From Chryseobacterium sp. SORGH_AS_0447 (GTDB lineage: Bacteria > Bacteroidota > Bacteroidia > Flavobacteriales > Weeksellaceae): 64,000 nt of DNA. Below the pieces are notes generated by a model that made no database searches, had not been told where the DNA came from, and was given only the letters and a program-made list of their open reading frames with translations. Position 1 is the first letter of the stretch; every line of letters begins with the position of its first letter. The stretch is taken from positions 1,916,501 through 1,980,500 of the forward strand of contig NZ_JAUTAR010000001.1 of the NCBI RefSeq assembly GCF_030818695.1, written 5' to 3'. The translations under genes were made by a program, and so were the position numbers. Of the stretch, positions 54,275-63,972 are shown piece after piece.

Positions 54275-57042
54275 TGATCATGAAAAGAAAATTAAATATA
54301 TTCAGTCTGTTGCTGGCAGCGGGACTTTCTTATGCGCAGACGGGCGGGCTTTCCGCAGGCGAAAATTATGTCTACACCAAAAACTGCCTGAATGAAGACT
54401 GCAGCAGGAAGACGGAAGCCGTGGAATATTCCGACGGGCTGGGAAGATCCAAGCAAGTGATCGGCATCAAAAGCTCCCCAAGCGGGAAAGATGTGGTCAC
54501 TCCCCTCGAATACGATGTTTTCGGAAGGCAGGTGAGGTCCTACCTGCCGATCCCGCAGACGGGTACCCAGAACGGAGCCCTCTACGCCGATCCGAAAGCC
54601 GTTGCACCGCAGACCTACGGCAGCGATCCGTATTTCTATTCCGAATCGGTAATGGAAAGCTCACCGTCCGCAAAAATCCTTTCCGGGACCAAACCGGGAG
54701 CCGATTATCACGGGTATTCCGTGAACTATGGTTATGAGATGAATGCTGCCGGTGAAGTGAAAAAATATACGGTGACGACTTCATGGACAAACGGGGCAAC
54801 AGACAACGCCATTACACTTTCCGGAAATTACAGTGCCGGGGCGCTGGTGAAAACCTCCGTTACCGATGAGGACGGCCACAAAACCACGGAATTTAAAAAC
54901 GGGAAAGGGCAGACGGTTCTCGTAAGAAAAGAAAACGCAGATACCTATTACGTCTACAACAAATACGGGCACTTAGCTTATGTAATTCCTCCACTGGCAG
55001 CTTCCCAGGCACTGACCGCCACTTTGCTAAACGACCTCTGCTACCAGTACCGGTACGACAGCCGGGGCAGGCAGGTGGAGAAAAAGCTGCCCGGCAAAGG
55101 CTGGGAATATACGGTGTACGACCGGCAGGACCGTGTCCTGATGACCCAGGATGCCAATATGGGCGCATCGAAGCAGTGGCTGTTCACGAAATACGATAAG
55201 CTGGGAAGAGCGGTGTATACCGGGATCTTCACCAGTGCGCAGAACTACGGAAGCGAAGGCAGGCAGGCCGAACAGGTACAAGCCAACAGCGCTTCGGCGC
55301 CCCGGAACGAAAGCCGGGACACCGGAGGCTTCAGTGCCGGCGGCGTAACGGCATATTATACCAATGCCGTATATCCTACGGCTTTTACAAAGATCCTGAG
55401 CATCCATTATTTCGATACTTATCCTTCAGGAAGCCCGGCCCGGCCGTCCCAGATTTTTTCCAAAGCGACCCTCGGGGACAATATGGCCGATGCCGTAAAT
55501 ACCAAAAACCTTCCTACAGCTTCCTATGTGAAGAATATTGAGGATGACCACTGGACGAAAAGCTATATCTGGTACGATGAAAAGGCAAGGGCGGTAGGGA
55601 CCTATGCGGTAAACCACCTCGGGGGATTTACCCAAACGGAATCTGCCCCGGATTTTGCCGGTGCCCTGCAGCAAACCAGGGTTACCCATGCAAGGCTGGC
55701 TTCCGATACACCTAAAGTCATTACCCAGACCTTTGAGTACGATGCGCAGAACCGCCTGACAAAGCAGTGGCACCAGGTCGACAGCCGCCCACAGGAGCTT
55801 CTTTCCGAAAATACCTACAACGAGCTTTCGCAGCTGACGGGTAAAAAGGTGGGCAGTAACCTCCAGGATGTCTCGTACAGCTACAACATCAGGGGTTCGG
55901 TAACTAAGGTGAATGACCCTGCTTCCCTGGGAACGGATCTTTTTGCCTATTCCCTGGATTATTACACCCCGGCCTCTTCCGCTTCAGGGAAATACAGCGG
56001 GAACGCAGCGGTCAACAGCTGGAAGACTTCCCAGGACCAGGTGCTCAGAAGCTACACCTACCAGTATGACAGCCTGAACAGGCTGACCAAGGGGATCTAC
56101 GCGGAACCCGGCAATTCGGTACCGCAGAATGACTTTTACGGGGAAACGGCTGACTATGACCTAAACGGCAACATCACGGCCCTGCAGAGAAACGGCAAAA
56201 ACGCCCTGGGCGCCATATCCCTGATCGATAACCTGAACTACACCTATGCCTCCGGAAACAAACTGACGTCGGTAACGGATGATTCGGGAAATTATGCGGG
56301 GTATCCGGATGTATCGGGAAATACCATTTCCTATGATGACAACGGGAATATGAAGGATCATATCGATAAAGGGATTCTGGAAATAAGATACAACCTGCTG
56401 GACCTGCCTGCTTATGTAAAGTTTGATAAGTCATTTGTGCCGAGAGTTAATTTTGGCAATGCCAGTTATAATGTAAATACCCAATACCTTTACCGTGCAG
56501 ACGGCATAAAGTTGAAAAAAACATATACCTACGGCAACGGAAAAACTAATGCTGAAGTTAATACGGTAACGGAGTACCTGGATGGATTTCAATATGAGGC
56601 GACCACCACGACGGGAAAACTGGCCATGATCTTAAAATTTGTCCCTACCCCCGAAGGGTATTACGATTTTGAAAAAAATAGGTATATTTACAGCTACACA
56701 GACCATTTGGGAAATGTACGCCTGAGCTATTTTAAAAATGCCGGTGGCAGCGCAGAAGTTCTTGAAGAAAACAATTTTTACCCGTTTGGGCTGAAGCACG
56801 AAGGCTATAACCAGACGGCAGGCAACCCTTCTTACAACTACCAGTATAACGGAAAAGAATTACAGAAGGAAACGGGCTGGAGCGATTATGGAGCCAGGAT
56901 GTATATGGCCGATATCGGAAGATGGGGCGTTGTCGATCCGTTAGCCGAAACCAGCAGAAGGTTTACTCCGTATAATTATGCCTATGATAATCCGATAAGT
57001 TTTATCGATCGCGGATGGGAGGAAAGCGATGGCAGCAAATGA
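54274..57042 (+). CDS. exported RHS-type protein 2 (DUF6443, RHS core; TcC-like), C-terminus cut by frameshift
   Basis: A 922-residue protein with a signal peptide (MIMKRKLNIFSLLLAAGLSYAQ), a DUF6443-like N-terminal domain (NYVYTKNCLNEDCSRKTEAV, SDGLGRSKQVIGIKSSPSG), YD repeats (VYNKYGHLAYVIPPL, TVYDRQDRVLMTQDANMG, TFEYDAQNRLTKQW, YDLNGNITALQRNGK) and the RHS-associated core (YSYTDHLGNVRLSYFKNAGG, YPFGLKHEGYNQTAGNPSYN, GWSDYGARMYMADIGRWGVV, DPLAETSRRFTPYNYAYDNP). The frame should continue through the DPDGRK motif into a toxin tip, but an extra G at 57011 (GATCGCGG against GATCCGG in the copy at 58741) shifts it, and it stops after FIDRGWEESDGSK. The tip continues in the frame at 57029. Confidence 0.88.
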   Translation: MIMKRKLNIFSLLLAAGLSYAQTGGLSAGENYVYTKNCLNEDCSRKTEAVEYSDGLGRSKQVIGIKSSPSGKDVVTPLEYDVFGRQVRSYLPIPQTGTQNGALYADPKAVAPQTYGSDPYFYSESVMESSPSAKILSGTKPGADYHGYSVNYGYEMNAAGEVKKYTVTTSWTNGATDNAITLSGNYSAGALVKTSVTDEDGHKTTEFKNGKGQTVLVRKENADTYYVYNKYGHLAYVIPPLAASQALTATLLNDLCYQYRYDSRGRQVEKKLPGKGWEYTVYDRQDRVLMTQDANMGASKQWLFTKYDKLGRAVYTGIFTSAQNYGSEGRQAEQVQANSASAPRNESRDTGGFSAGGVTAYYTNAVYPTAFTKILSIHYFDTYPSGSPARPSQIFSKATLGDNMADAVNTKNLPTASYVKNIEDDHWTKSYIWYDEKARAVGTYAVNHLGGFTQTESAPDFAGALQQTRVTHARLASDTPKVITQTFEYDAQNRLTKQWHQVDSRPQELLSENTYNELSQLTGKKVGSNLQDVSYSYNIRGSVTKVNDPASLGTDLFAYSLDYYTPASSASGKYSGNAAVNSWKTSQDQVLRSYTYQYDSLNRLTKGIYAEPGNSVPQNDFYGETADYDLNGNITALQRNGKNALGAISLIDNLNYTYASGNKLTSVTDDSGNYAGYPDVSGNTISYDDNGNMKDHIDKGILEIRYNLLDLPAYVKFDKSFVPRVNFGNASYNVNTQYLYRADGIKLKKTYTYGNGKTNAEVNTVTEYLDGFQYEATTTTGKLAMILKFVPTPEGYYDFEKNRYIYSYTDHLGNVRLSYFKNAGGSAEVLEENNFYPFGLKHEGYNQTAGNPSYNYQYNGKELQKETGWSDYGARMYMADIGRWGVVDPLAETSRRFTPYNYAYDNPISFIDRGWEESDGSK

Positions 57043-57182
57043 TTTAGGACTTCCGATAGCTACAGGGGGTGTCTTGGAAAATATCATGGGTGGCCGCGCA
57101 TGGCAGTTTGGAGGAATTGATGAATTTGCTGAATTAAAAAAATATGCTGCAGAACAAGAAAAAAAAAGCGGTGGAGGAAGTG
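56748..57182 (+). repeat. RHS-core repeat, expressed-site copy
   Basis: This 435-bp stretch, from CAGCGCAGAAGTTCTTGAAG to GCGGTGGAGGAAGTG, is almost identical to 58481-58915. Its first 278 bp also match 60422-60698 and 62380-62656. It covers the end of the RHS core and the pre-toxin linker up to a Gly-Gly-Gly-Ser, after which the sequences diverge completely. Confidence 0.9.
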
Positions 57183-63514: not shown

Positions 63515-63519
63515 AAATC

Positions 63520-63972
63520 ATGAATAGTAAAGAATTTAAATCAGTATTTGGCGAAATAGCTAAATCCAACGATTTTAAACAAGCATTTGGAGGATGGTAT
63601 AAAGAAAGTTCTGAATGCATTGCCATACTTGAATTGCAAAAATCAAATTTTTCAGATAGTTATTATTTAAATGTTAAGATATTTATCCAAGGGATCTTTG
63701 GTCTGAAACATTCTCCATCGAAAAATTTAATAAAAAGTCCTATGGGAGATATTACAAATCAAATGAGAGATCTTGATGTCTTGAATTTTGATAATTCTAT
63801 TAGTGAGACAGATAGAATTGAACTCTTAAAAGTACTCTTTAAAGATTGTATATTACCTTTCATCAACAATTTATTATCTAAAGCTAGTATAAAAGAAATG
63901 GCTGATACAGGAAAGATATGTTTACTTCCTGCTGTGAAAAAGGAGTTGGAGAAAATAACCCATACCATTTAG
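63520..63972 (+). CDS. DUF4304-like immunity protein for tip 4
   Basis: Starts 5 bp after the nuclease stop. From ATG 63520 the protein has 150 residues (MNSKEFKSVFGEIAKSNDFK); the longer frame from 63487 overlaps the toxin and adds residues without likeness. The segments FKQAFGGWYKESSECIAILE, LQKSNFSDSYYLNVKIF and IQGIFGL resemble DUF4304 proteins, many of which sit beside toxin genes. It has no signal peptide, so it is cytoplasmic, where a nuclease toxin would act. Confidence 0.75.
   Translation: MNSKEFKSVFGEIAKSNDFKQAFGGWYKESSECIAILELQKSNFSDSYYLNVKIFIQGIFGLKHSPSKNLIKSPMGDITNQMRDLDVLNFDNSISETDRIELLKVLFKDCILPFINNLLSKASIKEMADTGKICLLPAVKKELEKITHTI

What the first reader, a model, noticed from the sequence alone, without database searches (positions are those of the whole stretch)
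56748..63972. Array of four exchangeable RHS toxin tips with immunity genes behind one exported RHS shell
Seen: four copies of the same RHS-core end (56748, 58481, 60422, 62380), each followed by a different or diverged toxin domain and a small gene in immunity position. Copies 2-4 also share an upstream spacer of about 85 bp and are disabled before the core (extra T in copy 2, TAA in copies 3 and 4). Known: orphan rhs tips that displace the active tip by recombination are described in enterobacteria with T6SS-linked Rhs. Inference: this is the same strategy in a flavobacterium, but with a Sec-exported TcB/TcC-like shell next to a T9SS protein.
Basis: partly seen in the sequence, partly recalled or inferred. 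Interest (0 to 1): 0.8.

Follow-up and report, generated by a model that had tools for sequence, protein, structure and literature searches.

The report
Swappable toxin-tip array in a flavobacterium
A flavobacterium keeps one delivery-shell gene followed by a row of spare, probably silent toxin-plus-antidote cassettes that related species carry on their own shells; it is a known kind of toxin-swapping locus, with new detail on where the swaps are cut.

Summary
The array is real: four RHS-core ends (56747, 58480, 60422, 62380) each precede a toxin and an immunity-position gene. Corrections: copy 1 is out of frame with its tip, copy 2 is open, the 'spacer' is leader plus core remnant, toxins 2 and 3 are one family. 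The order T9SS propeller, RHS-family gene, shell, tip recurs in relatives; 13 of 30 usable named loci carry extra cores. Toxin 3 is shell-attached in seven congeners, off the shell in six. A sister species at the orthologous locus has a diverged shell (44% aa) under the same tip 1 and immunity 1 (94% nt); homology starts at a glycine-rich hinge. Best reading: C-terminal displacement as in enterobacterial rhs, beside a T9SS gene, with joints at core and hinge. Similar arrays are in print for Ornithobacterium, Rhs/T9SS linkage for Apibacter: a new member of a known kind. New: the hinge joint, and a two-hairpin block heading silent cassettes, matched in 22 of 173 genomes but not this one. No switching within a species was seen.

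The parts
49896..51524 (+). T9SS type A sorting-domain beta-propeller protein, 542 aa
   Evidence: Pfam Por_Secre_tail E 3e-11, SBBP/delta-60 propeller repeats; homologue upstream in 33 of 35 named RHS loci, the other two starting at a contig end
51530..54274 (+). RHS-family protein in the TcB position, 914 aa, signal-peptide-like N-terminus (by eye)
   Evidence: Only an RHS repeat near the C-terminus; overlaps the next ORF by one base
54274..57042 (+). RHS shell gene, DUF6443 plus Rhs core, 922 aa, signal-peptide-like N-terminus (by eye); out of frame with tip 1
   Evidence: profile matches TccC3/YenC2
56747..57024 (+). Core repeat copy 1 (end of the shell)
57029..57763 (+). Tip 1: linker A plus weak Tox-MPTase3-like metallopeptidase toxin (HETAH motif, by eye)
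   Evidence: 17.8 bits, below the 25-bit cut-off
57168..57182 (+). Glycine-rich hinge of copy 1, where homology with sister species G157 starts
57766..58185 (+). Immunity-position gene 1, lipoprotein-like (lipobox read by eye)
   Evidence: follows tip 1 in G157 too, 91% aa
58400..58482 (+). Leader of copy 2: ATGTTAATA segment plus degenerate core remnant
58480..58758 (+). Core repeat copy 2 (orphan)
   Evidence: 98.6% to copy 1 over 437 nt including linker A; 4 substitutions, all synonymous, plus 2 length differences
58760..58915 (+). Linker A of copy 2, identical to that of copy 1, ending in the Gly hinge
58916..59610 (+). Toxin 2, 230-aa family with H62, G63 and C147 among its invariant residues, no convincing Pfam or PDB sequence match
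59588..60274 (+). Immunity-position gene 2 (signal-peptide-like N-terminus, by eye)
60316..60351 (-). Terminator-like hairpin between cassettes 2 and 3, scored on the minus strand
   Evidence: 10 found vs 8.1 expected in the region, so weak
60353..60424 (+). Leader of copy 3
60422..60699 (+). Core repeat copy 3 (orphan), one in-frame stop
60866..61560 (+). Toxin 3, same family as toxin 2
61538..62227 (+). Immunity-position gene 3
62274..62304 (+). Terminator-like hairpin between cassettes 3 and 4
   Evidence: same caution
62310..62381 (+). Leader of copy 4; an 18-mer that ends in this segment occurs exactly 5 times in 173 genomes, each time at an RHS array
62380..62656 (+). Core repeat copy 4 (orphan), two in-frame stops
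62657..63514 (+). Tip 4: linker plus Tox-REase-9 nuclease toxin (residues 248-340 of ORF 62492-63514)
   Evidence: E 5e-29
63487..63972 (+). Immunity-position gene 4, DUF4304
   Evidence: E 4e-9
63973..64000 (+). Start of a tip-like remnant (by eye) that continues beyond the window (L009:478-713), followed by a SUKH-1 gene

Best explanation
This is a T9SS-linked Rhs polymorphic-toxin locus shaped by repeated C-terminal displacement. One shell operon (T9SS propeller, RHS-family gene, RHS shell) can carry one tip at a time. When a new toxin-immunity cassette recombines into the expressed position, the old one is pushed downstream with a 5'-truncated core, usually without a start codon. The cassettes behave as units that run from a glycine-rich hinge (or the core) through toxin, immunity gene, terminator and leader into the next core. 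Exchange happens at two joints, the core repeat and the Gly hinge, so tips can move between shells too diverged to recombine in the core, or a shell can be replaced under a tip that stays. Shown by sequence: modular mosaicism, the same tips attached in other species, a different shell on the same tip at the orthologous locus, and orphan cores that keep the marks of selection on protein. Inferred: the orphans act as a reservoir that can be re-attached; the small genes give immunity; the toxins act on rival bacteria; the shell reaches the surface with the help of the T9SS propeller.
For: Repeat anatomy. Copies 1 and 2 share core and linker A at 98.6% over 437 nt and then carry unrelated toxins; copies 2 and 3 share the toxin but not the linker. 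C. gregarium L044 carries the toxin-3 type attached to its shell (70.7% aa). Of 172 other congeners 17 have this toxin: in 7 it lies in an open frame of at least 1220 aa, in 8 in a short frame (2 of these cut by a contig end), in 2 as a fragment. Sister species G157, same flanking genes (86-88% nt upstream, 82-87% downstream): RHS-family gene 31% aa and shell 44% aa, but 57168-58250 is 94.3% identical over 1085 nt and fused to its shell in one 1211-codon frame, and 58916-60470 is 86.2% over 1568 nt as an orphan. Ungapped, the match at tip 1 goes from 3-5 of 15 bases to 13 of 15 in the hinge bin and 11-15 after; at tip 2 from 3-7 to 8 in the hinge bin and 11-14 after. Genus-wide, shared fronts end within 8 aa of a Gly-rich window in 47 of 65 pairs (random positions 33%), and shared toxins start there in 42 of 90 ends (random 21%) (pairs not independent). 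In named relatives 13 of 30 usable loci have extra copies, 29 in all: 29 have a stop-free core in the matched frame, 22 a tip of at least 200 aa, 24 no in-frame ATG upstream. Orphan versus attached core: 30 comparisons (27 of those 29 plus three here), 26 computable, median dN/dS 0.10.
Against: No second strain of this species was available, so no switch within a species is shown. In this assembly no tip is fused in frame to the shell, copies 3 and 4 carry stops and tip-like remnants decay downstream, so at least part of the array is a graveyard. The dN/dS evidence may record selection in donor strains before displacement; the control (attached versus attached, dS 0.1-1.0) rests on 7 pairs and gives 0.26, and many orphan dS values are near saturation. 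No call shows delivery, toxicity or immunity. The Gly-hinge statistic is partly trivial, since such linkers are Gly-rich near the toxin start. 17 of 30 usable named loci have no extra copy.
Confidence: 0.82

Rival explanations
1. Graveyard: the orphans are displaced tips that only decay; nothing is re-used, and their order is history.
For: Copies 3 and 4 have stops in the core, two tip-like pieces beyond the window are fragments, and copy 1 is out of frame. 7 of 29 extra copies in named relatives have tips under 200 aa.
Against: 29 of 29 extra copies in named relatives have a stop-free core in the matched frame and 22 of 29 keep a long tip frame. Core dN/dS is low. The copy 1/2 front is nearly identical on different toxins, so an exchange involving the shell copy was recent.
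Confidence: 0.35
2. Immunity bank: cassettes are kept for their immunity genes, which protect against neighbours; the toxin halves are hitch-hikers.
For: Immunity-position genes 2 and 3 are open with dN/dS 0.24. C. gregarium has three tandem homologues of this gene behind one attached toxin. Two similar small genes follow the far remnant (by eye).
Against: The toxin halves are about as constrained as the immunity-position genes (0.26 vs 0.24), and 22 of 29 orphan tips in named relatives keep a long open frame.
Confidence: 0.35
3. Orphans are independent small genes, translated from their own starts, for example as toxin-antitoxin modules inside the cell.
For: Copy 2 has an open frame with an ATG in the leader (58411, 399 aa), and tip 1 overlaps the shell stop and could be translated by re-initiation. 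5 of 29 extra copies in named relatives have an in-frame ATG upstream. A toxin-antitoxin role is reported for Salmonella RHS elements (PMC7043789, title and start of abstract in the listing).
Against: 24 of 29 extra copies in named relatives have no in-frame ATG before the core; immunity proteins 1-3 look exported while such a toxin would stay inside (by eye).
Confidence: 0.1
4. The frame break of copy 1 is a sequencing error and the strain has an ordinary attached tip 1.
For: G157 has the same tip fused in frame; 32 of 33 named main copies have at least 100 aa in frame after the core.
Against: The genome is one contig at 99.97% completeness, though no reads were available to check.
Confidence: 0.4

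Closest known systems
Enterobacterial rhs C-terminal displacement (Jackson et al. 2009, PMC2935791; passages)
   Same: Core fragments with different tips stand downstream of an intact gene; the tip pool is shared between strains; a circle that recombines in the core is proposed to explain displacement without loss
   Different: There cores within a locus were identical and exchange was limited to one core clade; here homology at a Gly hinge shows one tip on shells only 44% alike. Beside a T9SS gene, and no T6SS VipB in the genome
Salmonella LT2 rhs orphan (Koskiniemi et al. 2014, PMC3967940; passages)
   Same: Orphan fragment without initiation signals next to the main gene, sharing a core stretch, with its own immunity gene
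   Different: There recombination with the main gene is supported by experiment; here it is inferred from comparison only
Ornithobacterium hominis and Bergeyella cardium RHS arrays (PMC6421346, PMC13183296; passages)
   Different: There a single >9 kb gene with SpvB/TcdB signatures, and RHS toxins are described in general as T6SS-delivered; here split genes beside a T9SS propeller, and breakpoints resolved at one orthologous locus
Apibacter Rhs proteins (PMC8125069; passages)
   Same: Rhs genes adjacent to T9SS type A sorting-domain genes; T9SS association proposed; [quoted passage not shown]
   Different: Those Rhs proteins carry SpvB and TcdB domains; arrays of this type and the Gly-hinge joint are not in the passages read
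Tc (ABC) toxin BC cocoon, TccC3 and YenC2
   Same: The profile of the shell matches TccC3/YenC2 RHS cores (the best hit in that list is a mosquito salivary gland surface protein, the organism recalled, and teneurin-like proteins also match)
   Different: No SpvB/TcdB domain in the partner; TcA was not looked for; a bacterial rather than insect target is inferred

Membership tests
Rhs polymorphic toxins | RHS/YD repeats with a conserved Rhs-associated core before a variable tip | tested here: met
   RHS_repeat, DUF6443 and Rhs_assc_core in the shell; Rhs_assc_core in copies 2-4
Rhs polymorphic toxins | Variable C-terminal toxin with adjacent small immunity-position gene | tested here: met
   Tox-REase-9 with DUF4304; weak Tox-MPTase3; toxin 2/3 family unnamed; small gene after each. 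Toxicity and immunity themselves not tested
Rhs polymorphic toxins | DPxG-type motif at the core/tip border | tested here: inconclusive
   DPDGRK in copies 2-4 and in the consensus of 15 shells; the frame is broken there in copy 1. That this is a cleavage site is recalled
rhs C-terminal displacement arrays | Displaced core fragments with tips downstream of a full gene, lacking a start | tested here: met
   copy 2 does have an ATG in its leader
rhs C-terminal displacement arrays | Orphan tips found attached to full genes elsewhere | tested here: met
   Toxin 3 attached in 7 congeners and in named C. gregarium
rhs C-terminal displacement arrays | Switching of an orphan into the expressed position within a strain | not testable with these tools
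   No conspecific genomes or reads
T6SS Rhs effectors | T6SS sheath genes in the genome | tested here: not met
   VipB PF05943: 0 matches in the own genome; 1 of 14 control genomes rings, E. coli. Only this one T6SS family was searched
T9SS cargo | T9SS C-terminal sorting domain on the RHS proteins themselves | tested here: not met
   Sorting domain only on the neighbour 49896-51524; none on the two RHS proteins. SprA is present in the genome
Tc toxin TcB/TcC pair | SpvB/TcdB domain in the B component | tested here: not met
   0 of 14 homologues at E up to 0.01
Tc toxin TcB/TcC pair | TcC-type RHS cocoon | tested here: met
   Profile hits to TccC3 (E 1e-14) and YenC2 (E 3e-10)

The most novel reading that the evidence does not exclude
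Silent Rhs cassettes in Chryseobacterium begin with a dedicated boundary element. A ~49-bp two-hairpin block sits at one place in the orphan core, breaks the frame, and is more alike between species (85%) than the core next to it (70%; 44 of 44 pairs, though found by similarity search). A model of it matches 56 places in 22 of 173 genomes, nine of them in a row at about 2-kb spacing in G052; of 50 contexts read some are degenerate. It could mark, insulate or help recombine cassettes, which would make these arrays a toxin-cassette system loosely comparable to an integron. This window's own leaders share the outer part of that leader but not the block.
Probability: 0.12. Interest if true: 0.75.

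Novelty: new member of a known kind. Interest (0 to 1): 0.43.

Why it matters
It shows at base level, in two sister species with the same chromosomal locus, that a toxin-immunity unit and its delivery shell change independently, with the cut at a glycine-rich hinge rather than only in the conserved core. That would explain how tips cross between shells too diverged for homologous recombination in the core. It also gives a set of loci across the genus, 33 of 35 named ones with a T9SS propeller gene upstream, in which the reservoir, immunity-bank and graveyard views can be tested.

Tried and rejected
Rejected: four different toxins (copies 2 and 3 are one family). Rejected: a T6SS locus (no VipB). 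Not upheld: the TcB label for 51530-54274. Not resolved: the fold of toxin 2/3. A caspase-like fold was my guess from the H-G and C residues (recalled); the PDB sequence search of A3 gave nothing below E 0.45, Pfam only scattered weak matches, and neither structure job finished. Hairpin block: covariation is modest. On A1, 2 pairs and 5 cells change on both sides (68 and 0 of 500 shuffles reach this); on A2, 3 pairs and 16 cells, against 0-4 cells in slid controls, but 270, 22 and 105 of 500 shuffles reach the pair count, the cell count and the covariation score, and A2 was fitted to the model. No Rfam family reached its gathering score in three loci that hold the block. It is not in this genome at E 0.01; an unfiltered scan of 56500-64000 gave only the core flank at 56690 with 22.5 bits, all else at 10.6 bits or less. 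In the table, counted, it stands in 0 of 46 copies with at least 700 open codons upstream and 14 of 72 with fewer than 300 (some loci are there under two names); outside that table, in G156, it interrupts an 850-codon shell frame. Dropped before the reading: 3 of 53 matches, as the same places under a second locus name. The leader 18-mer has 5 exact hits in 173 genomes, each at an RHS array, but the reversed control has 4 hits, so only the location is informative. A first core query was in the wrong frame and was redone. Literature: a four-term search on a Gly-rich joint gave 0 papers, which is thin.
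Full report
What is there. Three genes stand in a row: a T9SS type A sorting-domain beta-propeller (49896-51524), an RHS-family protein (51530-54274) and an RHS shell with DUF6443 and the Rhs core (54274-57042). The end of the core is repeated three more times downstream. Copies 1 to 4 are followed by a weak Tox-MPTase3-like domain, two members of one unnamed 230-aa family, and a Tox-REase-9 nuclease. A small gene follows each: one lipoprotein-like, two with signal-peptide-like starts, one DUF4304 protein (export signals read by eye). 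Beyond the window follow two tip-like remnants (by eye), a SUKH-1 gene and two similar small genes; no further core copy was found there by DNA comparison.

The shell frame and the tip-1 frame do not meet in this assembly: the shell ends at 57042 in another frame and tip 1 is an overlapping separate ORF. An intact fused copy of this tip exists in G157. Copy 2 is not stopped; copies 3 and 4 are. The upstream 'spacer' is a short leader and a degenerate remnant of the core coding sequence. Similar leaders stand before orphans in C. gwangjuense and in unnamed congeners G157 and G159. Terminator-like sites lie before copies 3 and 4, but the number in the region is not above chance (10 found, 8.1 expected).

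Mosaic inside the window. Copies 1 and 2 are 98.6% identical over 437 nt, from the core through linker A to a GGGS hinge, and then carry unrelated toxins. Copies 2 and 3 have different linkers but the same toxin and immunity families at about 80% nt, with dN/dS 0.26 and 0.24. The four substitutions between copies 1 and 2 are synonymous. Two joints are therefore visible in one locus: the core and the hinge.

Relatives. Of 35 named loci, 33 have the propeller upstream within the stretch held; the other two start at a contig end. 33 have a main core, 30 of these with at least 3 kb behind it; 13 of the 30 carry extra core copies, 29 in all. All 29 have a stop-free core in the matched frame, 22 a tip frame of at least 200 aa, 24 no in-frame ATG before the core; detection by translated search favours open frames. 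Against the attached core of the same locus, 30 comparisons (27 of the 29 plus three here) gave 26 computable values with a median dN/dS of 0.10, so most of their divergence arose while translated. The control, attached against attached at dS 0.1-1.0, has 7 pairs and a median of 0.26. Own genome: five propeller/RHS operons, the window's and L010-L013. Their propellers are 79-94% alike and their shells 40-59%, with one pair at 87%; in the stretches fetched, one of the four other loci has one orphan copy.

The same tips in other positions. The toxin-3 family is present in 17 of 172 other congeners: in seven it lies in an open frame of at least 1220 aa, in six in a short frame with room upstream, in two in a short frame cut by a contig end, in two as a fragment. 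C. gregarium has it attached, followed by three tandem homologues of the immunity-position gene. The end of tip 1 is a remnant orphan in C. angstadtii (84% over 50 aa), and the front of tip 4 matches the attached tip of C. taichungense, which ends in another toxin.

The sister species. G157 has the same neighbours upstream (86.4% over 3856 nt, 88.1% over 2874 nt, 92.2% over 948 nt) and downstream (81.9%, 81.9% and 86.7%). Its RHS-family gene is 31% and its shell 44% identical in protein to ours, and the best of the five own shells reaches 45%. Its propeller region is 79-81% (nt). Yet 57168-58250 (hinge, toxin 1, immunity 1 and the bases after it) is 94.3% identical over 1085 nt and is fused in frame to that other shell in a 1211-codon frame. 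The block 58916-60470 (toxin 2, immunity 2, leader, first bases of the next core) is 86.2% identical over 1568 nt and stands there as an orphan with only a Gly-rich stub before it. In an ungapped comparison by 15 bases, the match at tip 1 is 3-5 before the hinge, 13 in it and 11-15 after; at tip 2 it is 3-7 before, 8 in the hinge bin and 11-14 after. Either the tip moved between shells or the shell was replaced under the tip; since tip 1 is at or above the identity of the flanks, replacement of the shell operon is at least as likely. G157 is 95% complete with 3% contamination.

Is the hinge general? Among 106 distinct tips, 65 pairs share a front, and the shared part ends within 8 aa of a Gly-rich window in 47 (random positions 33%); 45 pairs share a toxin, and 42 of 90 ends start there (random 21%). 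Pairs are not independent and some genomes contribute several tips.

Hairpin block. Many orphans in other species carry, at one core position, a ~49-bp block with two small hairpins that breaks the frame. A covariance model, which also spans some flanking core, matches 56 places in 22 of 173 genomes, including nine in 16 kb of G052 and nine in G135, none in our genome. I read 50 contexts: most hold the block, some in degenerate form, and one (G156) has it inside a long shell frame. It is 85% alike between species while the adjacent core is 70% (44 of 44 pairs; ascertained by similarity). Some pairs change on both sides, with mixed support from the shuffles. It may be an inherited scar that spreads with the cassettes, since a circle integrating through the core (model in PMC2935791, passages) would pass its leader to the displaced tip; or it may have a role of its own.

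Prior work. Passages read show C-terminal displacement in enterobacteria (PMC2935791), evidence for re-attachment in Salmonella (PMC3967940), Rhs next to T9SS sorting-domain genes in Apibacter (PMC8125069), displaced tips behind an SpvB/TcdB-type rhs in Ornithobacterium hominis (PMC6421346), and a tip shared with Bergeyella cardium on a different main RHS (PMC13183296). Polymorphic toxins, including Tox-MPTase3 and C-terminal caspase-like toxins, are catalogued in PMC3482391 (passages). T9SS-linked polymorphic toxins of another class were proposed in PMC7073777 (abstract passage). PMC12483513 lists toxin-immunity pairs of one family in three Chryseobacterium strains (passages). The listings (20 of 46 papers shown; 5 papers) show no title on Chryseobacterium Rhs arrays; they cover open-licence papers only and I did not open most of them.

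Verdict. The finding is a genuine member of a known kind of locus. The mechanism (displacement, exchange at core and hinge) is well supported by comparison; re-use within a strain, delivery by T9SS, immunity and antibacterial action are inferred.

Noticed in passing
L164 and L165 (G052:C1:2672000-2709000): Tandem array of orphan Rhs cassettes behind a shell; nine matches to the hairpin model and seven orphan cores with tips of 261-301 aa in the stretches read.
   Followed up: partly
L166-L170 (G135:C1:905000-941000 and 1508000-1556000): Two very large arrays, about 10 and about 19 extra core copies behind a shell (overlapping stretches counted once by hand).
   Followed up: partly
L176:8012 (G156:C50): The one context of 50 read that has the hairpin block inside an otherwise open 850-codon shell frame, which would cut the shell off from its tip.
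   Followed up: no
L010, L011, L012, L013 and window 49896-51524: Five paralogous T9SS propellers in one genome are 79-94% alike although their RHS shells are mostly 40-59% alike, as if the propeller were the constant part (two propellers compared in part only).
   Followed up: partly
window 46315-47316 and L009 about 5060-5340: IS110-type transposase upstream of the operon, and what looks by eye like a transposase remnant after the array.
   Followed up: no
L044:13530-15648: Three tandem homologues of immunity-position gene 3 behind one attached toxin in C. gregarium.
   Followed up: no
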